From Patulibacter minatonensis DSM 18081 (GTDB taxonomy: Bacteria; Actinomycetota; Thermoleophilia; Solirubrobacterales; Solirubrobacteraceae): a stretch of 63,278 nucleotides of DNA. Position numbers and translations under genes: made by a program. The stretch lies in contig NZ_KI912613.1 in NCBI RefSeq assembly GCF_000519325.1, positions 5,303,578 to 5,366,855 on the forward strand, given 5' to 3'. Shown here one piece after another: positions 3,503 to 10,192 of the stretch. Numbering within the stretch: the first letter of the stretch is position 1; the number at the start of each line of letters is the position of its first letter. Below the pieces are notes generated by a model, which did not search any database, was not told where the DNA came from, and saw only the letters and a list, made by a program, of their open reading frames with translations.

Positions 3503-5101
3503 TCAGGGGACCTTGATCCCCGGGAGCCCGACGACCGGCGGGACGGCGACGGTCAGCCCCGACGGGCCGCCGAGCGTCACGGTGCCCGAGCCCTGTCCGG
3601 GGATCGGCACGGCGAGCGTCACGCCGTCGGAGCCCACGGTCACCGTGGGGAGCGCCGGGAGCACGGGTGACGAGGTCGTCGGCGTGGGGGCCGGGCCGGG
3701 ATCCGCGGCCGCCGTCGGGGTGGGCTCCTCGGCGGGCGACGCGACGGTCGGCTCCGTCGGCTCCGTCGTGCCGGGGGCGGGCGACTCGGTCGTGGTGGTC
3801 GGCGCGCTCGGCGTCGCCTCGTCCGTGTCGGTCGTCGTCGGGGGCGTGGGGTCCGTCGTCGCGGTGGGTGCCGGATCGTCCGCGGGTGCCGCGGCGACCG
3901 AGGTCGGACCGGCCGGATCCGTGACGGCGCGGAGCCCGGTGCCGCCGGCCCGCAGCGCCCGCCCGGCGTCGCGGCCCGTCGACCGGAGCGCGCGGCGCGT
4001 CGTCCGCACCGTGGCCCGGCGCTCGGCCGGCGTCGCCGCCGGCGGCGCGGACGCGACCGGCGGGGCGGTGGTCGTCGGCGCGGCCGACGCCTTCCGGTCG
4101 CCGCCGCCGGGCAGCACCGCGGCCGCGGTCGCGACCGCCGCGACGGACGCCACCGCGCCGGTGATGATGCCCGCCTGCGTGCCGATCCCCGCGAGGAGGC
4201 CGCCGAACCCGGACCCTCCCCCGGTCGCGACGGTCGCCGTGCCGCCGACGGACGCCGCCGCGCCGGCGCCGACGACCGACGCCCCGCCGACCGCGGCCGT
4301 CCCTCCCAGCACCGCCGGGACCTGGGTGGCGCTCAGGCCGACCGCGGCCCACGGGAGCACGATCGGCGGGACCGCCGCGCCGATCCCGCGGAGCGCCAGG
4401 ACGCGGGCCCGGCAGCCCGAGCACTCCCGGAGGTGGTCGCGGGCCAGCACGTGGCGCGGACCGCCCTGCTCGAGGACGCCGAGCGCGTAGGCCGTGATCA
4501 GCGACCGCTGGGACGCGCACCACTCGTCGCCGCTGACCTCCTCGACGACCGACCGGACGACCTTCGACGCCCGGTCCATGACCTTCTGCATCCGCGAGGC
4601 GCGGATGCCGAGCTCGTCAGCGGCCTCGTCCCGCGAGTAGCCGTGCAGGTAGCAGAGGACCGCGGCGCGGCGCTCGCGCTCGCCGAGGCGCGCGCGCATG
4701 CCCTCGGCCAGCTCGCGGAGCCGGCGCTCGTCGTCGAGGCGGTCCTCGATGTCGCGGTGCGGCGCGGCGAGCGTCGCGGGATCGACGTCCTCGCGGCGGT
4801 CGCCCCGGCGGCCGCGGTGCTCGTCGACGACCCGGAAGAACGTCGCCTGCGTCAGGAAGCCCGCGGGGTTCTCGACCTCGTCGCCCGACGCGAGCTTCGC
4901 GTACAGGGCCTGCCACGCCAGGTTGTAGGCCGGATCGATGTCCGCGGGGTCGACCCGGGCCCCCAGCCGGCTGAGCTTGCGCTCCACGGCGGAGCACGTC
5001 GCCGCGCGGAGGCGCTCGTAGTCGCGCTCGAGGACCTTGCGGGCCCGGCGCTCCACCCCGTGGGCCCGCTCCCGCGGACGCGGGAGCTCCGGGGCGCTCA
5101 T
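3503..5101 (-). CDS. Membrane-tethered sigma-70-family factor with zinc-finger motif and Thr/Pro-rich tail
   Basis: A 532-residue multi-part protein. Residues about 27-95 resemble sigma region 2 (AWQALYAKLASGDEVENPAG, FFRVVDEHR). Residues about 138-188 form a region-4 helix-turn-helix (CYLHGYSRDEAADELGIRAS). H223-x3-C227-x2-C230 matches the zinc-binding HxxxCxxC of anti-sigma (ZAS) domains. An Ala/Gly-rich hydrophobic stretch with a likely membrane helix at about 306-330 follows, then some 135 residues rich in Thr, Pro and Ala, and a Gly/Val-rich end. Normally the ZAS and membrane parts are on a separate anti-sigma factor; here they are fused to the sigma factor, so release by proteolysis or a conformational switch would be needed. 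No separate anti-sigma gene is adjacent. The start at ATG 5101 is a choice; ATG 5191 is also in frame. Confidence 0.75.
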   Translation of the reverse strand: MSAPELPRPRERAHGVERRARKVLERDYERLRAATCSAVERKLSRLGARVDPADIDPAYNLAWQALYAKLASGDEVENPAGFLTQATFFRVVDEHRGRRGDRREDVDPATLAAPHRDIEDRLDDERRLRELAEGMRARLGERERRAAVLCYLHGYSRDEAADELGIRASRMQKVMDRASKVVRSVVEEVSGDEWCASQRSLITAYALGVLEQGGPRHVLARDHLRECSGCRARVLALRGIGAAVPPIVLPWAAVGLSATQVPAVLGGTAAVGGASVVGAGAAASVGGTATVATGGGSGFGGLLAGIGTQAGIITGAVASVAAVATAAAVLPGGGDRKASAAPTTTAPPVASAPPAATPAERRATVRTTRRALRSTGRDAGRALRAGGTGLRAVTDPAGPTSVAAAPADDPAPTATTDPTPPTTTDTDEATPSAPTTTTESPAPGTTEPTEPTVASPAEEPTPTAAADPGPAPTPTTSSPVLPALPTVTVGSDGVTLAVPIPGQGSGTVTLGGPSGLTVAVPPVVGLPGIKVP

Positions 5102-5277
5102 GGACGGAGGCCGGGCGGGCCGGCTGATCGACGGACGGACATCGGGATCGGGCGTCCCCGTGGACAGGGCCCGCGGAACGGTCCCGTTCATGATGCCCGA
5201 TCCGCGGGCCGCCGTCGCTTCTTCCGTCGCGGCGGCACGGCCCCGTCCCTCGCCCGCGGCGGCGGAACGACGCCCGG

Positions 5278-5283
5278 TAGAGT
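5278..5283 (+). promoter_or_regulatory. -10 element (TAGAGT) of the thioesterase gene
   Basis: TAGAGT ends 7 nt before ATG 5291, predicting a leaderless or nearly leaderless transcript. There is no Shine-Dalgarno sequence in the short interval. Confidence 0.45.
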
Positions 5284-5290
5284 CCGTAGC

Positions 5291-5812
5291 ATGAACGAAC
5301 CCGCCAAGCCGCCGGCTGCTCCCGGGACCCGTCGGAAGACGATCACCTGGGAGGACCCGCTGCTGACCGCCCGCGCCGGCGCCGACCTGCCCGGGCTCGA
5401 GTTCCTCGGTCGCGTGGCCGCCGGCGAGATCCCGCCGCCACCCATCGCCCGCCTGATGGGCTTCGATCTCGGCGAACTCGCCGAGGGCGTCGCCGAGTTC
5501 GTGGGGACGCCCGACGAGTCCGTCTACAACCCGATCGGGATGGTCCACGGCGGCTACGTCTGCACCATGCTCGACTCCGCCCTGGGTTGCGCGGTCCACA
5601 CGACCCTGCCCGCGGGCGTCGCGTACACCTCGATCGAGATCAAGGTGAACTACCTGCGCCCGGCCCACGCAGACGTCGGCGAGCTCCGCGTGCGCGGCCG
5701 GGTCACGAAGGCGGGCCGGCGCGTCGCCTTCGCCGAGGGCGACGTCCGCGACGCCGCGGGACGCGTCTTGGCCACCGCCCAGAGCTCGCTGCTGATCATC
5801 GCCCCCGCGTAG
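5291..5812 (+). CDS. PaaI-family hot-dog thioesterase
   Basis: A 173-residue hot-dog-fold acyl-CoA thioesterase. The family signature NPIGMVHGGYVCTMLDSALG lies near residues 79-98, with the conserved HGG turn and the helix that follows. The strand IEIKVNYLRPA and the ending TAQSSLLII are also typical. These enzymes hydrolyse acyl- or aryl-acyl-CoA in the cytoplasm; the substrate cannot be read from the sequence. It lies 45 bp before the ABC ATPase gene, which has its own -10 box, so co-transcription is possible but not required. Confidence 0.88.
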   Translation: MNEPAKPPAAPGTRRKTITWEDPLLTARAGADLPGLEFLGRVAAGEIPPPPIARLMGFDLGELAEGVAEFVGTPDESVYNPIGMVHGGYVCTMLDSALGCAVHTTLPAGVAYTSIEIKVNYLRPAHADVGELRVRGRVTKAGRRVAFAEGDVRDAAGRVLATAQSSLLIIAPA

Positions 5813-5842
5813 CCGCGCCGGCGGCGCCCCCGGGACGGCCGG

Positions 5843-5848
5843 TACCCT
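5843..5848 (+). promoter_or_regulatory. -10 element (TACCCT) of the ABC importer ATPase/permease genes
   Basis: TACCCT ends 9 nt before GTG 5858, consistent with near-leaderless transcription. No riboswitch fits in the interval, so ATPase and permease seem outside the TPP control seen at 7803. Confidence 0.4.
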
Positions 5849-5857
5849 GGGCCGCCG

Positions 5858-6625
5858 GTGAGCTCCGACGACCTCCCGGCCTCCGGGGCCGCCCCGCTGG
5901 TCGCCCGTAGCGTGTCGCGCAGTCTCGGCGCGCTGCCCGTCCTGGACGGGATCGACCTCGAGATCGGCCCGGGCGAGGTCGTCGCGCTCGTCGGGCCGTC
6001 CGGCTGCGGGAAGTCGACGCTGCTCGAGCTCGTCTGCGGGCTCCAGCCCGCGGACGCCGGGACGGTGACGGCCCGGCCCGCGGCGCTGATGCCCCAGCGG
6101 GACCTGCTGCTCCCCTGGCTCGACGCACGGGACAACGTCGCGCTGCCGCTCCGGATCGCGGGCACCGGCCGCAAGGAGGCCCGCGGGCGCGCCCAGGAGC
6201 TCCTGGACCACGTCGACCTGGGGCGCTTCGCCCGCAGCCGCCCGGACCAGCTCTCCGGGGGCATGCGCCAGCGGGTCGCCTTCCTGCGCGCCCTGGCGAC
6301 CGACCGCGAGCTGCTGTGCCTCGACGAGCCCTTCGGCGCCCTCGACGCCATCACCCGCGAGGAGCTCCGCGCGTGGCTCGCGCGACTCCTGGACGAGCGA
6401 CCGCGCGGCGTGCTGCTCGTGACGCACGACGTCGAGGAGGCCGTCCTGCTCGGCGACCGGGTCGTCGTCCTGTCGCCCCGCCCTGCGCGCGTGACCGGGA
6501 CGTTCGCGGTCGAGGGCGCGCGCTCCGGGCGCGACGTCGCCGACCCGTCGGTGCTGGCGGCCCGGACCGCGGTGCGCGACGCGCTCCACGACGCGATCGC
6601 CGCCGGGCGCGGGGGCATCCCGTGA
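5858..6625 (+). CDS. ABC transporter ATPase, nitrate/sulfonate/thiamine-precursor type
   Basis: A 255-residue nucleotide-binding subunit of the SsuB/TauB/ThiZ group. Walker A is GPSGCGKST (about residues 48-56), the Q-loop is in MPQRDLLLPWLDARDN, the signature is LSGGMRQRVAFLRAL, and Walker B is LLCLDEPFGALDAITRE. The H-loop follows in VTHDVEEA. It powers import by the permease encoded next, whose GTG start overlaps its stop (6622-6625). The nearest binding protein (7939-9033) is of the thiamine-pyrimidine class, so the likely cargo is a thiamine precursor. By homology alone, taurine, sulfonate and nitrate systems cannot be excluded. Confidence 0.93.
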   Translation: MSSDDLPASGAAPLVARSVSRSLGALPVLDGIDLEIGPGEVVALVGPSGCGKSTLLELVCGLQPADAGTVTARPAALMPQRDLLLPWLDARDNVALPLRIAGTGRKEARGRAQELLDHVDLGRFARSRPDQLSGGMRQRVAFLRALATDRELLCLDEPFGALDAITREELRAWLARLLDERPRGVLLVTHDVEEAVLLGDRVVVLSPRPARVTGTFAVEGARSGRDVADPSVLAARTAVRDALHDAIAAGRGGIP

Positions 6626-7434
6626 GCCCCGCGCCCCGCGCGTCGCGGCCGTCCGGCGACCGGCGCCCCCTGCCCCGCGGCGTCCGCGTCCTGCTGGGCG
6701 TGCTCGGCCCGCTGCTGCTCCTCGGCGGCTGGCAGGCGTACGTCCGCCTCGCCGACGTCGACGAGATCCTGCTGCCGGCGCCCACCACCGTGCTCACGGC
6801 GCTGCACGACGACCGCCACCTCCTGTGGCACGCGTTCCAGCGCACCGCGCAGGAGATCCTCCTCGGCCTGGCCATCGCGCTGGTGGTCGGAGCGCTCCTG
6901 GCGATGACGATGCACCTCTCGCGCGTCGTCCGGGCGCTGCTCGGCCCGCTGGTGATCGGCACCCAGGCGATCCCGCTCCCGGTCCTCGCCCCCGTCCTCG
7001 TGTTCTGGCTCGGCTTCGGGCTGGCGCCGAAGCTCGCGATCGTGGCGATCATCTGCTTCTTCCCGGTCACGATCGCGACGCTCGACGCCCTGGAGCGGGT
7101 CGACCCGGAGCTGCCGCGCCTGCTGCGCACGATGGGGGCCTCGCGGCTCCAGCTCCTGCGCTGGGTGGAGCTCCCGGCGGCCCTGCCGGCGGCGCTCTCG
7201 GGAGCGAAGGTGTCGGTCGCCATCGCCGGGATCGCGGCGATCTTCGCGGAGTACGCGGGCTACGAGCAGGGAGAGGGCGGGCTCGGCGGGGTGATCCAGA
7301 CGGCCCAGCTGAACACCGCGCGGGCGTTCGCGGCGGTGGCGATCCTCGCCGTCTTCGCCGTCGTCACGACCGGGGCGCTGGCGGTCCTGCAGCGCCTCGC
7401 GGCGCCCTGGGCGCACAGCGGGCGGCGCGGCTGA
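6622..7434 (+). CDS. ABC transporter permease, ThiX/SsuC type
   Basis: A 270-residue inner-membrane permease of the BPD_transp_1 family with about six hydrophobic helices. The coupling motif, RTMGASRLQLLRWVELPAALP, contains the EAA-like loop that docks on the ATPase. GTG 6622 overlaps the ATPase stop by 4 nt (GTGA), so translation is coupled. The sequence EYAGYEQGEGGLGGVI near the end is typical of the nitrate/sulfonate/thiamine-precursor permeases. A hairpin just after the stop separates this pair from the riboswitch-controlled binding protein. Confidence 0.92.
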   Translation: MSPAPRASRPSGDRRPLPRGVRVLLGVLGPLLLLGGWQAYVRLADVDEILLPAPTTVLTALHDDRHLLWHAFQRTAQEILLGLAIALVVGALLAMTMHLSRVVRALLGPLVIGTQAIPLPVLAPVLVFWLGFGLAPKLAIVAIICFFPVTIATLDALERVDPELPRLLRTMGASRLQLLRWVELPAALPAALSGAKVSVAIAGIAAIFAEYAGYEQGEGGLGGVIQTAQLNTARAFAAVAILAVFAVVTTGALAVLQRLAAPWAHSGRRG

Positions 7435-7441
7435 GCGGACG

Positions 7442-7459
7442 GGCGTCGGGTGCGACGCC
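7442..7459. terminator. Hairpin terminator candidate
   Basis: GGCGTCG (7442-7448) pairs with CGACGCC (7453-7459) around GGTG. It begins 8 nt after the permease stop, making a shared transcript with the binding protein less likely. Confidence 0.45.
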
Positions 7460-7483
7460 GCGATGCCGACCGGGCCGCGGGGA

Positions 7484-7645
7484 CTACCGGCCGGTCGCGG
7501 CGACGCCGGCCCGACGGGCCGGGCGCTCCGCGGCAGCGACCTCGACGACGCGGCGCTGACCTGAACGATCGGCGTAGGCGACGGCCCCGAGGAGCGCGAC
7601 GTTGACGGCGACCCAGGCCACGAGCAGGAGCAGGACGATCAGCAT
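7484..7645 (-). CDS. Small single-helix membrane protein
   Basis: A 53-residue protein starting at ATG 7645. Residues 1-24 form one hydrophobic helix (MLIVLLLLVAWVAVNVALLG) and the rest is a basic/Ala-rich soluble tail. No family recognised. It lies on the opposite strand between the permease and the TPP riboswitch. No convincing ribosome-binding site is visible, so the call rests on the helix and codon character. Confidence 0.4.
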   Translation of the reverse strand: MLIVLLLLVAWVAVNVALLGAVAYADRSGQRRVVEVAAAERPARRAGVAATGR

Positions 7646-7784
7646 GGGATCCAGTGTGGTTGCGCCTCGAACCAAAGCCGGTACGAAACCGTATCGAGCT
7701 GGTGTCTCCGTCATCCGTCCACCGGACTTGCGTCGCCGCCCGGGCCCGGCCCGCGGCGTGCGGCGGGGCGGGCGGTCGAGCCGA

Positions 7785-7790
7785 TACCCT
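7785..7790 (+). promoter_or_regulatory. -10 element (TACCCT) upstream of the TPP riboswitch
   Basis: TACCCT sits about 13 nt before the first conserved riboswitch bases, so transcription would start just 5' of the aptamer, as needed. Confidence 0.5.
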
Positions 7791-7802
7791 CGACGCGTCT
7801 GA

Positions 7803-7890
7803 AGAACCGGGGAGTCCCAGGCGGGGGCTGAGAGGGCGCCGGGTCCGCGCCGACCCGACGACCTGATCCGGCTCATACCGGCGGAGGGAG
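7803..7890 (+). ncRNA. TPP riboswitch (THI element)
   Basis: The conserved aptamer blocks appear in order. They are CGGGGAGTCCC near 7808, GGCTGAGAGG near 7827, a variable GC-rich stem near 7837-7856, and ACCTGATCCGGCTCATACCGGCGGAGGGA at 7861-7889 (cited here as the classic CTGATC...ATACCGGCG...AGGGA block). The 3' purine block GGAGGGAG doubles as a Shine-Dalgarno sequence 4 nt before ATG 7895. Ligand binding would therefore be expected to hide the ribosome site (translational control). It controls the thiamine-precursor-type binding lipoprotein downstream. Confidence 0.95.
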
Positions 7891-7894
7891 CACG

Positions 7895-7942
7895 ATGGAA
7901 CGATCCGACGGACCGCTGAGCACGCGAGGGACCGGCCGATGA
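7895..7942 (+). CDS. Leader ORF between TPP riboswitch and binding lipoprotein
   Basis: ATG 7895 opens a 15-codon frame (MERSDGPLSTRGTGR) that ends at TGA 7940-7942. This stop overlaps the ATG of the lipoprotein gene at 7939 as ATGA. It is the start best placed for the riboswitch purine block GGAGGGAG (7883-7890). The lipoprotein also has a possible site of its own, GAGGG at 7926-7930. The leader may thus couple translation of the transporter gene to the riboswitch state. No peptide function is implied. Confidence 0.5.
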   Translation: MERSDGPLSTRGTGR

Positions 7943-9033
7943 CGCGCCGACCGCTCGTCCTGCTCGCCGCGGTCGCCACGACGCTCGGCCTCGCGGCCTG
8001 CGGCGAGCGCAGCGAGGACGTCGCGGGGACCTCGAAGCCCCCGGCGGCGAAGCTCTCGCTGCTGCTCGACTACCTGCCGAACGCCGACCACGCCGGGATC
8101 TTCCAGGCGCAGAGCAGCGGCGCGTTCACGAAGGCCGGTCTCGACGTCGACGTCAAGACCCCGGACGACCCGGCCACCGTCCTGAAGCTCGTCGAGACCG
8201 GCAAGGTCGACGTCGGCATCTCCTACGAGCCCGAGGTCCTGCTCGCCCGCGCCCAGGGCCAGAACGTCGTGGCGATCGCCGGCGTCGTCCAGCGTCCCCT
8301 GACGTCGCTGATCAGCCTGCCGAAGGCCGGCATCGCGAAGCCCGCCGACCTCGAGGGCAAGACGGTCGGCACGGCCGGGATCCCGTACCAGAACGCCTAC
8401 CTCGACACGATCGCGAAGTCCGCCGGGATCTCCCCGTCGTCGATCAAGCGCGTGGACGTCGGGTTCAACCTCGACCAGGCCCTCGTCTCGGGCAAGGTCG
8501 ACGCCACGCTCGGCGGCTTCTGGAACGTCGAGGGCGTCGAGCTGCAGCAGAAGAAGCGGGATCCGCGGATCACGCCGGTCGACAAGCTCGGGGTGCCGTC
8601 GTACGCGGAGCTCGTCCTCGTCGCCCGCGGGGACACCCTGACGAAGAAGGAGTCCTCGATCCGGCGCCTCGTCCGCGCGATCGGCCAGGGCTACCAGGTG
8701 GTCCGGAAGAACCCGTCGGAGGGCGTGAATCCGCTCCTGAAGGCCAACGAGGACCTCGACCCGAAGCTCCAGGAGGCGGCGGTCGCGAAGACCGTCGACG
8801 CGTTCTTCCCCACCGGCAAGAACGCGAAGCAGCCCTGGGGCTGGCTCGACACCGACCAGTGGGCCGACTACGCCCAGTGGATGCTGCAGAACGGCCTCCT
8901 GAAGAAGCAGCTCCCGCTCGACAACGTCGTCACGACGGACTTCCTCGCCGGTGAGGGCGCGGGCGTCGGCCGCAAGACGCCGGACGGCTCGGCCCGCCCG
9001 GACCAGAGCCTGCCGGGCTACCGCGGCGAGTAG
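7939..9033 (+). CDS. ABC substrate-binding lipoprotein, ThiY/NMT1-like (thiamine pyrimidine precursor)
   Basis: A 364-residue exported lipoprotein. The signal peptide ends in the lipobox LAAC with Cys 21. The mature part is an NMT1/THI5-like binding fold: LLLDYLPNADHAGIFQAQ near residue 40, then VETGKVDVGISYEPEVLLA and the ligand-loop region GTAGIPYQNAYLD. ThiY proteins bind N-formyl-aminopyrimidine or HMP, salvage precursors of thiamine. The TPP riboswitch directly upstream supports this strongly. The matching ATPase and permease are encoded 0.5 kb upstream but appear to have a separate promoter. Confidence 0.92.
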   Translation: MTRRPLVLLAAVATTLGLAACGERSEDVAGTSKPPAAKLSLLLDYLPNADHAGIFQAQSSGAFTKAGLDVDVKTPDDPATVLKLVETGKVDVGISYEPEVLLARAQGQNVVAIAGVVQRPLTSLISLPKAGIAKPADLEGKTVGTAGIPYQNAYLDTIAKSAGISPSSIKRVDVGFNLDQALVSGKVDATLGGFWNVEGVELQQKKRDPRITPVDKLGVPSYAELVLVARGDTLTKKESSIRRLVRAIGQGYQVVRKNPSEGVNPLLKANEDLDPKLQEAAVAKTVDAFFPTGKNAKQPWGWLDTDQWADYAQWMLQNGLLKKQLPLDNVVTTDFLAGEGAGVGRKTPDGSARPDQSLPGYRGE

Positions 9034-9041
9034 CCGCGGGC

Positions 9042-9069
9042 GGGCCGGACGCGCCGGGGCGTCCGGCCC
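9042..9069. terminator. Strong hairpin terminator candidate
   Basis: GGGCCGGACGC (9042-9052) pairs perfectly over 11 bp with GCGTCCGGCCC (9059-9069) around a 6-nt loop. It begins 8 nt after the lipoprotein stop and faces a convergent gene. Confidence 0.65.
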
Positions 9070-9118
9070 CACGCCCGTCGGGCGGTCGCGGTCCCGCGTC
9101 GACGACGCCGCGGCGCGC

Positions 9119-10192
9119 TCAGGCCGCGACGGGCGCCGCGTCCCGCGGGGGCGCCGCGACTCCCGCCGCGACGACGTCCGGGGCCCGGGGCGACGGAGCC
9201 CGCACGACCACCGGCGCCCCGGCCGCCGCGGGATGCCGCGGAGCGCGGGCGGCCCCGGCGGCGGGGACCGTGACGGCGCCCCGGCCCGCGAGGACCTCCG
9301 GGCGCGTGGCCATCACGTGGACCGCCGCCAGCGCCCCGTACGGCGCGTAGCGGTCCAGCCAGGCGTCGACCTCCTGCTCCGGCACCCGGGCCCGGGGGTC
9401 GCCGGTGAGGATCCGCCCGAGCGCCTTGCGGAGGTTGAGGTCACCGGACGGCGGGCGGTCGTGCCGGCCCAGCGCCTGGGAGGCCACGAGCGCGAGGGTC
9501 CACGTGCCGATCTCCGGGAGCCGCCCGAGCCGCAGGAGGACGCGGTCGGGGTCGCAGCCGGGGCCGGCGTCGATGCGGCCCGAGGCGATCTCCCGCGCCG
9601 CGCGATGGAGCGCGACGGCCCGCTTCGGGGCCAGCCCGCAGCCCTCGAGGTGCGCGGGGACGAGGCCGTCGGCCACGGCCTCCGCGTCGGGGGCGTCCCG
9701 GAGCCGGGGGTGGGTCGCGACGTCGGGCGCCCGGACCGTGCCGTGGCGGGCGATCAGGCGCCGCTCGATCCGCACGGCGTCCTCGTAGGCGATCAGCTGC
9801 TCGCACACGGCGCAGAGCAGCGCCTCGAAGACCGACAGCCGCCGGCCCGGACGCAGCCACGGCCGCGTGCGGATCGACGGCCCGATGAGCGGATCGTCCT
9901 TGTGGGCCGCCACGAACGGCGCGAGGTCGAGGTCCACGCCGAGCCCGAAGCGCCAGCGGGCGAGTGCGGACGCGGCGGCCCGCCGAGGATCGCCCTCCCC
10001 TCCCCCGTCCGCCCGGGCGCCGAGCACCACCCGGCCGTCGCGCAGCTGCGCGGCCCGGAGGAGCACGTCGTGCCCGCCGGAGCGCACGTAGCGGAAGAGC
10101 ACGCCGTCCCGACGGCGCAGGAGCCCGTCGGCCGAGGAGCGCGGGAGGCGGTAGGGACCGGCCGGGCCGACCTCGGCACGGACCTCGATCAC
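9119..10192 (-). CDS. AlkA-like DNA-3-methyladenine glycosylase (HhH-GPD)
   Basis: A 357-residue base-excision-repair glycosylase. The helix-hairpin-helix region reads LGRLPEIGTWTLALVASQAL (about residues 226-245). It is followed by PPSGDLNLRKALG, whose Asp is the expected catalytic residue of the AlkA family. An upstream segment, GCGLAPKRAVALHRAAREI, is also typical. The N-terminal 110 residues resemble the AlkA N-domain. The final 50 or so residues are an Ala/Pro-rich extension not usual for the family. The GTG start at 10192 is supported by a TAGCCT -10 box on the same strand, 7 nt upstream. Confidence 0.88.
   Translation of the reverse strand: MIEVRAEVGPAGPYRLPRSSADGLLRRRDGVLFRYVRSGGHDVLLRAAQLRDGRVVLGARADGGGEGDPRRAAASALARWRFGLGVDLDLAPFVAAHKDDPLIGPSIRTRPWLRPGRRLSVFEALLCAVCEQLIAYEDAVRIERRLIARHGTVRAPDVATHPRLRDAPDAEAVADGLVPAHLEGCGLAPKRAVALHRAAREIASGRIDAGPGCDPDRVLLRLGRLPEIGTWTLALVASQALGRHDRPPSGDLNLRKALGRILTGDPRARVPEQEVDAWLDRYAPYGALAAVHVMATRPEVLAGRGAVTVPAAGAARAPRHPAAAGAPVVVRAPSPRAPDVVAAGVAAPPRDAAPVAA

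What the first reader, a model, noticed from the sequence alone, without database searches (positions are those of the whole stretch)
7785..9033. TPP riboswitch acts through a 15-codon leader ORF overlapping the binding-protein start
The aptamer's 3' purine block GGAGGGAG is spaced for ATG 7895, not for the lipoprotein ATG at 7939. The leader ORF ends at TGA 7940-7942, overlapping the lipoprotein start as ATGA. Riboswitch control may thus be passed on by translational coupling.
Basis: seen in the sequence. Interest (0 to 1): 0.55.

Follow-up and report, generated by a model that had tools for sequence, protein, structure and literature searches.

The report
Vitamin B1 switch with relay uORF
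A vitamin B1-sensing RNA switch in the bacterium Patulibacter appears to have been copied from another vitamin B1 gene together with that gene's start codon, so it now starts a 15-codon mini-gene whose end overlaps the start of the real transporter gene and probably hands ribosomes on to it.

Summary
A TPP riboswitch (60 bits, 7798-7906) ends in a Shine-Dalgarno block spaced for ATG 7895. That ATG opens a 15-codon ORF ending in an ATGA overlap with a ThiY-like (NMT1/THI5) binding-protein gene at 7939. Coupling is the best reading, but unproven. At 129 of 150 TPP sites in the family (72 of 82 above Rfam's cut-off) the aptamer's purine block directly serves the main gene's start, so ATG 7895 sits where such a riboswitch normally starts its gene. 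In Patulibacter, 4 of 6 close orthologues carry the riboswitch: three have the ATGA relay (15, 15, 14 codons), one has the start in frame with the protein. Aptamer and first leader codons match the genus's own thiC riboswitch and thiC start: the leader looks like a captured thiC start. In P. medicamentivorans, without riboswitch, the gene overlaps the permease gene as ATGA, so coupling may be ancestral. Another genus shows a second relay, made by a repeat insertion. Nearest precedent: B12 riboswitch-uPPE2-PPE2 of M. tuberculosis. One such overlap alone has about a 28% chance.

The parts
5858..6625 (+). ABC transporter ATPase gene beside it (GTG start; upstream of the riboswitch)
   Evidence: PF00005 E 4.8e-28; ORF
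6616..7434 (+). ABC permease gene (start approximate)
   Evidence: PF00528 E 6.9e-24; ORF
7785..7790 (+). TACCCT, -10-like TAnnnT element just before the aptamer: possible own promoter
   Evidence: TAnnnT is concentrated 11-35 nt before the aptamer's G-run across family sites; no sigma-70 consensus hit, so a lead only
7798..7906 (+). TPP riboswitch aptamer (Rfam match; it includes the leader start)
   Evidence: RF00059 60 bits, E 2.8e-9
7883..7887 (+). SD1 GGAGG inside the aptamer; 7885-7887 pair with 7862-7864 in the Rfam fold
   Evidence: base pairs from the Rfam alignment
7895..7942 (+). 15-codon leader ORF MERSDGPLSTRGTGR*
   Evidence: homologous leaders in G085 and G052
7926..7931 (+). 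SD2 GAGGGA, seven bases before the binding-protein ATG, within the leader ORF
   Evidence: opening cost 9.7-10.8 kcal/mol
7924..7958 (+). predicted hairpin holding SD2 in its stem and AUGA in its 4-nt apical loop
   Evidence: MFE folds
7939..7942 (+). ATGA stop/start overlap
7939..9033 (+). ThiY-like (NMT1/THI5) substrate-binding lipoprotein gene
   Evidence: PF09084 E 1.7e-63; best solved match 3ix1, N-formyl-4-amino-5-aminomethyl-2-methylpyrimidine binding protein, E 1.6e-45; lipoprotein signal read by eye

Best explanation
This is a translational OFF-type TPP riboswitch whose Shine-Dalgarno sequence lies inside the aptamer. It controls the ThiY-like binding protein through a relay ORF. With TPP bound, the SD (GGAGG) is paired in the aptamer and ribosomes cannot start at ATG 7895. 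Without TPP, ribosomes start at 7895 and translate 15 codons. They melt the hairpin that hides the gene's own SD and stop at the TGA of ATGA. They, or others using the freed SD2, then start the binding protein at 7939. The leader ATG and first codons are a captured piece of thiC: the riboswitch was copied from in front of the genus's thiC together with the thiC start codon, because SD and start come with this aptamer type. Shown from sequence: the parts, their conservation and the kinship with thiC. Inferred: ligand binding, translation of the leader, reinitiation, and the direction of copying.
For: Direct use of the aptamer's purine block as SD is the family habit: at 129 of 150 TPP sites (89 genomes) a start codon 2-14 nt after it opens an ORF of at least 100 codons; 5 open a short ORF, 3 are cut by contig ends, 13 had no standard start or no anchor in the script. 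Counting only the 82 sites over Rfam's cut-off, it is 72 of 82, with 3 short, 2 cut and 5 none. Three of the 5 short ones are these Patulibacter leaders. Genus: of 8 genomes, 6 have a close orthologue (63-100% identity, own included); 4 of those 6 have the riboswitch. Three of 4 have an ATGA relay (MERSDGPLSTRGTGR, MERFDGPQPTRGTTR, MERHDAPHERRRLA); 1 of 4 (P. americanus) has the start in frame with the binding protein. Between G000 and G085 all four changed leader codons change the amino acid, so frame and overlap persist while the peptide drifts. In P. medicamentivorans (G065), without riboswitch, the permease frame runs into the ATGA of the binding-protein start (the last codon and stop read by eye). 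SD2 opening costs: 9.7-10.7 (G000), 8.8-9.3 (G052), 3.7-7.8 (G085) kcal/mol, against 4.2-5.2 in the two orthologues without riboswitch; it is the costliest of 12 SD-preceded starts that a crude filter found in the window. thiC origin: for each of the 4 aptamers the three others and then exactly the five thiC aptamers of MERHVF type are the eight nearest (a score tie at rank 3 for the window's own). The five proteins are ThiC by NCBIfam. The nine aptamers form one clade, support 0.975, in a tree of 149. The 12 bases after the start match four Patulibacter thiC genes at 8, 8 and 10 of 12 in the three relay leaders, against means of 2.3-2.9 and maxima of 5-6 at 128 other sites. Second case: G007, a 38-codon ORF ending in ATGA at an ABC ATPase ORF, containing a repeat found at four places over 135-156 of 156 bases in that genome. 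Precedent: uPPE2/PPE2 (PMC11260477).
Against: One ATGA overlap has about a 28% chance, and the close species are not independent. Since the gene already starts ATGA in a relative without riboswitch, the ATG-A itself need not have been selected for the relay. SD2 exists, so the gene could be started without the leader. The P. americanus leader start is GTG and its next 12 bases do not match thiC better than other sites (4 of 12; others up to 7); the fifth thiC (G030) scores 2-3 of 12 because the script took an ATG three bases upstream. The G052 aptamer is 0.1 bit under Rfam's cut-off and the G007 one well under it (54.2 and 45 against 54.3). The SD2 barrier in G085 falls to 3.7 kcal/mol in the longest window, and its background is only 12 starts. 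The fold of the region is not better than shuffles (z +1.7); only 2 of 5 P1 pairs are canonical. No expression data were available.
Confidence: 0.7

Rival explanations
1. The binding protein starts independently at its own SD (GAGGGA 7926-7931). The leader ORF is a passive relic of the copied thiC start, and the riboswitch affects this gene only weakly or indirectly.
For: SD2 is present with good spacing, and an SD-like block stands before the ATG in orthologues without riboswitch too, GGAGAC in G065 and G094. ATGA overlap has about a 28% chance.
Against: SD2 is predicted to be strongly occluded in G000 and G052. A riboswitch with no target would be expected to decay, yet it is found in 4 of the 6 species with the gene. 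P. americanus has the riboswitch start in frame with the gene.
Confidence: 0.17
2. Control acts on the transcript: when TPP blocks leader translation, Rho or RNA decay removes the untranslated mRNA, and the leader ORF only protects the 5' end.
For: In the M. tuberculosis metE B12 switch, mRNA loss accompanies SD masking (PMC11260477 Discussion). No intrinsic terminator was found in 7400-9300.
Against: Not exclusive of coupling. The SD-start spacing seen across the family points to translation as the primary step.
Confidence: 0.1
3. The leader encodes a functional peptide or a classical attenuation peptide.
For: Its first three residues recur in three species.
Against: All four codon differences between G000 and G085 change the residue. 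The recurring MER(H) is explained by thiC homology. By eye no codon run typical of attenuation is seen.
Confidence: 0.03

Closest known systems
B12 (cobalamin) riboswitch - uPPE2 - PPE2 relay of Mycobacterium tuberculosis (PMC11260477; abstract and sections 20, 22, 23 read)
   Same: A riboswitch controls the SD of a short uORF; the uORF overlaps the main gene as AUGA in another frame; main-gene translation there depends on uORF translation, mainly by termination-reinitiation.
   Different: Different riboswitch class and unrelated genes. The SD here is inside the aptamer. ppe2 has no obvious SD of its own, whereas this gene has a buried one. The leader here resembles the start of thiC. There is no experiment here.
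TPP riboswitch (RF00059) with SD inside the aptamer, directly upstream of thiC, thiO or ABC genes in the same family
   Same: Same aptamer, same purine-block SD, same start spacing; thiC and thiO confirmed for seven proteins.
   Different: There the start opens the main gene itself; here it opens a relay ORF.
Fungal TPP riboswitches linked to uORFs through splicing (recalled; PMC5882874 seen only as a listing)
   Same: TPP riboswitch and uORF work together.
   Different: Acts by alternative splicing in eukaryotes (recalled); no ATGA relay.
ThiXYZ-type pyrimidine-precursor ABC transporter (name and Bacillus halodurans origin of PDB 3ix1 recalled)
   Same: Binding protein is a sequence relative of 3ix1 (E 1.6e-45) beside ABC ATPase and permease genes.
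   Different: The riboswitch sits between permease and binding protein. Ligand untested.

Membership tests
TPP riboswitch RF00059 | Covariance-model score above gathering threshold | tested here: met
   60.0 against 54.3 bits over all 105 model positions
TPP riboswitch RF00059 | Conserved core: CUGAGA and ACCUGAU segments and the pairing of ACCU with the purine block (motifs recalled) | tested here: met
   CUGAGA and ACCUGAU present in the alignment; 7862-7864 pair with 7885-7887, fourth pair G-G not canonical; 23 of 27 pairs canonical in all
TPP riboswitch RF00059 | Closed P1 helix | tested here: inconclusive
   2 of 5 P1 pairs canonical
TPP riboswitch RF00059 | Binding of TPP | not testable with these tools
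   needs in-line probing or calorimetry
Riboswitch-uORF relay (uPPE2-like) | Riboswitch-controlled SD serves a short uORF, not the main gene | tested here: met
   by spacing only: 7 to ATG 7895, 51 to ATG 7939; same start position as main genes at 129 of 150 family sites
Riboswitch-uORF relay (uPPE2-like) | AUGA stop/start overlap, kept in relatives | tested here: met
   3 of 4 riboswitch-bearing orthologues in the genus, own included; the fourth is an in-frame fusion
Riboswitch-uORF relay (uPPE2-like) | Main gene lacks an accessible SD of its own | tested here: inconclusive
   SD2 present but predicted occluded
Riboswitch-uORF relay (uPPE2-like) | Main-gene output depends on uORF translation | not testable with these tools
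   needs reporter fusions
ThiY / NMT1-THI5 binding proteins | NMT1 domain above cut-off | tested here: met
   214.9 against 20.5 bits
ThiY / NMT1-THI5 binding proteins | Binds formylaminopyrimidine or HMP | not tested
   inferred from the 3ix1 relative and the TPP riboswitch

The most novel reading that the evidence does not exclude
Riboswitches whose SD lies inside the aptamer are transplanted together with the donor gene's start codon ('start-codon capture'). The new host gene is then reconnected either by an AUGA relay ORF or by in-frame fusion. Patulibacter shows both outcomes at one gene, and the repeat-element case in G007 shows a relay made by a different route. Relay uORFs behind riboswitches would thus be a recurrent evolutionary product of compact riboswitches.
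Probability: 0.5. Interest if true: 0.62.

Novelty: new variant of a known kind. Interest (0 to 1): 0.5.

Why it matters
It offers a second riboswitch class (TPP) with a probable uORF relay and suggests how such relays arise: a compact riboswitch cannot be moved without the start codon it controls. Annotation that assigns the riboswitch to the next long ORF would misread the controlled start here. The Patulibacter species with relay, fusion, and permease overlap without riboswitch form a ready natural series for testing termination-reinitiation under ligand control.

Tried and rejected
Intrinsic terminator or sigma-70 consensus promoter near the riboswitch: none found by the scan. A second TPP element before the ATPase gene: none in 5000-9200 at E up to 5. 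Peptide function of the leader: judged unlikely because the four codon differences between G000 and G085 are all amino-acid changes.

Other relays by pattern. In the phylum sample 17 of 396 genomes matched. Of their 18 loci Rfam called TPP in 2: this locus and an ordinary in-frame, thiC-like gene (by eye) in G349. G209 looks TPP-like by motif and its 8-codon ORF overlaps a 115-codon ORF, but the ATGA lies inside a hairpin followed by a T-run, read by eye as a terminator. In the held order, two patterns matched 29 of 232 and 27 of 232 genomes; 15 of the 45 places got no locus and were read only as printed. All 58 loci obtained (L214-L271) were scanned with Rfam: TPP was called in L236 (the G085 relay) and in L262 and L271 (one in-frame site of G012). 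Rfam's cut-off misses weaker sites: it missed the G052 relay (L237) and the G007 locus (L207) there. Among overlaps with an ORF of at least 100 codons in the 83 loci, L203, L205, L232 and L268 had no Rfam TPP match. The third P5 form (CCAGCG) was not searched outside the 101 family genomes, and leaders longer than about 50 nt escape the patterns. The short ORF at L093 (G054) is read as a remnant of the thiC C-terminus, not a relay: its MCGPKYCPMHNF matches the end of the thiC-like ORF in L003 (no Pfam hit for the 48 residues).

Literature: eight searches, on riboswitch with uORF, translational coupling and overlap; TPP riboswitch with leader peptide and translational coupling; TPP riboswitch with Shine-Dalgarno, Actinobacteria, thiC and translation; riboswitch with upstream open reading frame, reinitiation and bacteria; TPP riboswitch with uORF; THI element with ribosome binding site, Actinobacteria and thiamin; Patulibacter with riboswitch; TPP riboswitch with mycobacteri, Shine-Dalgarno and thiC. 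By title and start of abstract, none of the listed papers was about a bacterial TPP riboswitch acting through a uORF relay. The library holds open-licence papers only and most listed papers were seen as listings. In PMC6429828 only passages were seen.

Full report
What is there. The window lies in a single-contig genome (G000, 5.52 Mb). An ABC ATPase gene (5858-6625) and a permease gene (about 6616-7434) precede a TPP riboswitch (7798-7906, 60 bits), which is followed by an NMT1/THI5 binding-protein gene (7939-9033). The best solved relative of that protein is the formylaminopyrimidine-binding protein 3ix1 (E 1.6e-45). A TAnnnT element (TACCCT, 7785-7790) stands just before the aptamer. In the family, 138 of the 144 TAnnnT elements counted in the 120 nt before the aptamer's G-run lie 11-35 nt before it, so a transcript starting just before the aptamer is plausible; the sigma-70 consensus scan found nothing.

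The junction. GGAGG (7883-7887) is seven bases before ATG 7895, which opens MERSDGPLSTRGTGR*, ending in ATGA over the start of the binding protein. In the Rfam fold, 7885-7887 of this SD pair with 7862-7864 of the aptamer, so ligand binding itself would mask the SD. ViennaRNA puts it in a hairpin (7924-7958) with AUGA as the apical loop. Freeing it costs 9.7-10.8 kcal/mol, with or without the aptamer fold. In the relay orthologues G052 and G085 the cost is 8.8-9.3 and 3.7-7.8; in the two orthologues without a riboswitch it is 4.2-5.2. Among 12 SD-preceded starts that a crude filter found in the window, this one was the most costly. These are predictions on few sequences.

The family habit. In 101 genomes drawn from the family, 89 had TPP matches at E up to 0.001, 150 sites in all, of which 82 (in 61 genomes) reach Rfam's cut-off. 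All 150 junctions were fetched and printed. At 129 of 150 a start codon 2-14 nt after the aptamer's purine block opens an ORF of at least 100 codons; among the 82 strong sites, 72. Three are cut by contig ends. Thirteen had no standard start or no anchor in the script; two of those (L105, L108) show an ATG by eye. Five open a short ORF: three Patulibacter leaders, a thiC remnant (L093) and one further relay (L153). The aptamer-SD-start unit is thus the usual expression platform of this family, and ATG 7895 occupies its place.

The genus. Of 8 held genomes, 6 have a close orthologue of the binding protein (63-100% identity, own included). Four of the 6 have the riboswitch directly upstream; in G065 and G094 it is absent and a permease-like frame stands there instead. 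In G065 that frame runs into the ATGA of the binding-protein start; in G094 it stops about 75 bases earlier. So translational coupling to the upstream gene may be the older state, and the ATGA start older than the riboswitch. Of the 4 with riboswitch, three have the relay: G000 and G085 with 15 codons, G052 with 14. In P. americanus the corresponding start is GTG and lies in frame with the binding protein, giving an N-terminal extension. Two of the three possible frames would connect the riboswitch start to the gene, so the frame alone is weak evidence. What counts more is that the relay persists while all four changed codons between G000 and G085 alter the peptide and while the G052 leader differs by three bases in length. 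The chance of one such overlap is about 28%.

Where the leader came from. For each of the four binding-protein aptamers, the eight nearest of the family's aptamers are the other three and then exactly the five whose protein begins MERHVF (four Patulibacter, one G030; a tie at rank 3 for the window's own). All five proteins are ThiC by NCBIfam. The nine form one clade with support 0.975 in a tree of 149 aptamers; L021 (G037) and L129 (G094, thiO), other TPP sites of the genus, are not among the nine. Inside the clade the branching does not settle who gave and who received. The likeness continues past the start codon: 8, 8 and 10 of the next 12 bases match four Patulibacter thiC genes in the three relay leaders, against means of 2.3-2.9 and maxima of 5-6 at 128 other sites. 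The fifth thiC (G030) scores 2 of 12 with these three because the script took an ATG three bases upstream. P. americanus (GTG leader) does not show the match (4 of 12, other sites up to 7). The simplest reading is that the thiC riboswitch, with thiC's start and first codons, was copied in front of the binding-protein gene; the direction is inferred from thiC being the gene to which MERH belongs, also in G030 of another genus.

A second relay. In G007, of another genus, a weaker TPP site (45 bits, E 1.8e-7) starts 38 codons ending in ATGA over an ABC ATPase ORF. Two of seven related ATPases printed begin MATE directly behind their riboswitch. The G007 leader keeps MATE and then runs into a 156-base inverted-repeat sequence that matches four places of that genome, this one included, over 135-156 bases at 90-100% identity. 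A repeat insertion therefore seems to have separated start and gene, with an ATGA reconnecting them. No further TPP relay was found by pattern in the 232 genomes of the order or in 396 of the phylum, within the limits told under Tried and rejected.

Compared with the known. The closest system is uPPE2/PPE2 of M. tuberculosis, where a B12 riboswitch controls a uORF with an AUGA overlap and PPE2 is made mainly by termination-reinitiation (PMC11260477, abstract and sections 20, 22, 23). The Patulibacter case works like it on paper but is a different riboswitch class, has its SD inside the aptamer and has a recognisable origin. Leader translation, ligand binding and coupling remain untested.

Verdict. 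It is a new variant of a known kind, of moderate interest mainly for the start-codon-capture origin.

Noticed in passing
L153 / L207 (G007:C25:3699-3854): A 156-base inverted-repeat element matching four places over most of its length, and more in part, in G007; here it lies after the fourth codon behind a TPP riboswitch, before an ABC ATPase ORF.
   Followed up: partly
L093 (G054:C5:283669-283780 and downstream): A TPP riboswitch followed by a 48-codon ORF that reads like the C-terminal end of thiC; the rest of the gene is not there.
   Followed up: partly
L066, L084, L089, L101 (genus g25): Peptide-type binding proteins directly behind a TPP riboswitch (SBP_bac_5, E 1.5e-18 for L066; the other three look alike by eye): an unusual candidate thiamine-related transporter.
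   Followed up: partly
L021 (G037:C17:52311-52406): TPP riboswitch match in P. americanus about 100 nt before a short-chain dehydrogenase gene, with no start at the usual spacing; regulon member unexplained.
   Followed up: partly
L058, L091, L133, L151 and others of the 13 sites without a standard start: TPP sites where the position spaced for the aptamer SD seems to carry ATC, ATT or ATA instead of ATG/GTG/TTG, in front of what looks by eye like an intact gene; possible non-standard start codons.
   Followed up: no
L037 (G065) and L038 (G094): Orthologous binding-protein genes with no riboswitch; in G065 the permease frame overlaps the start as ATGA, in G094 it does not.
   Followed up: partly
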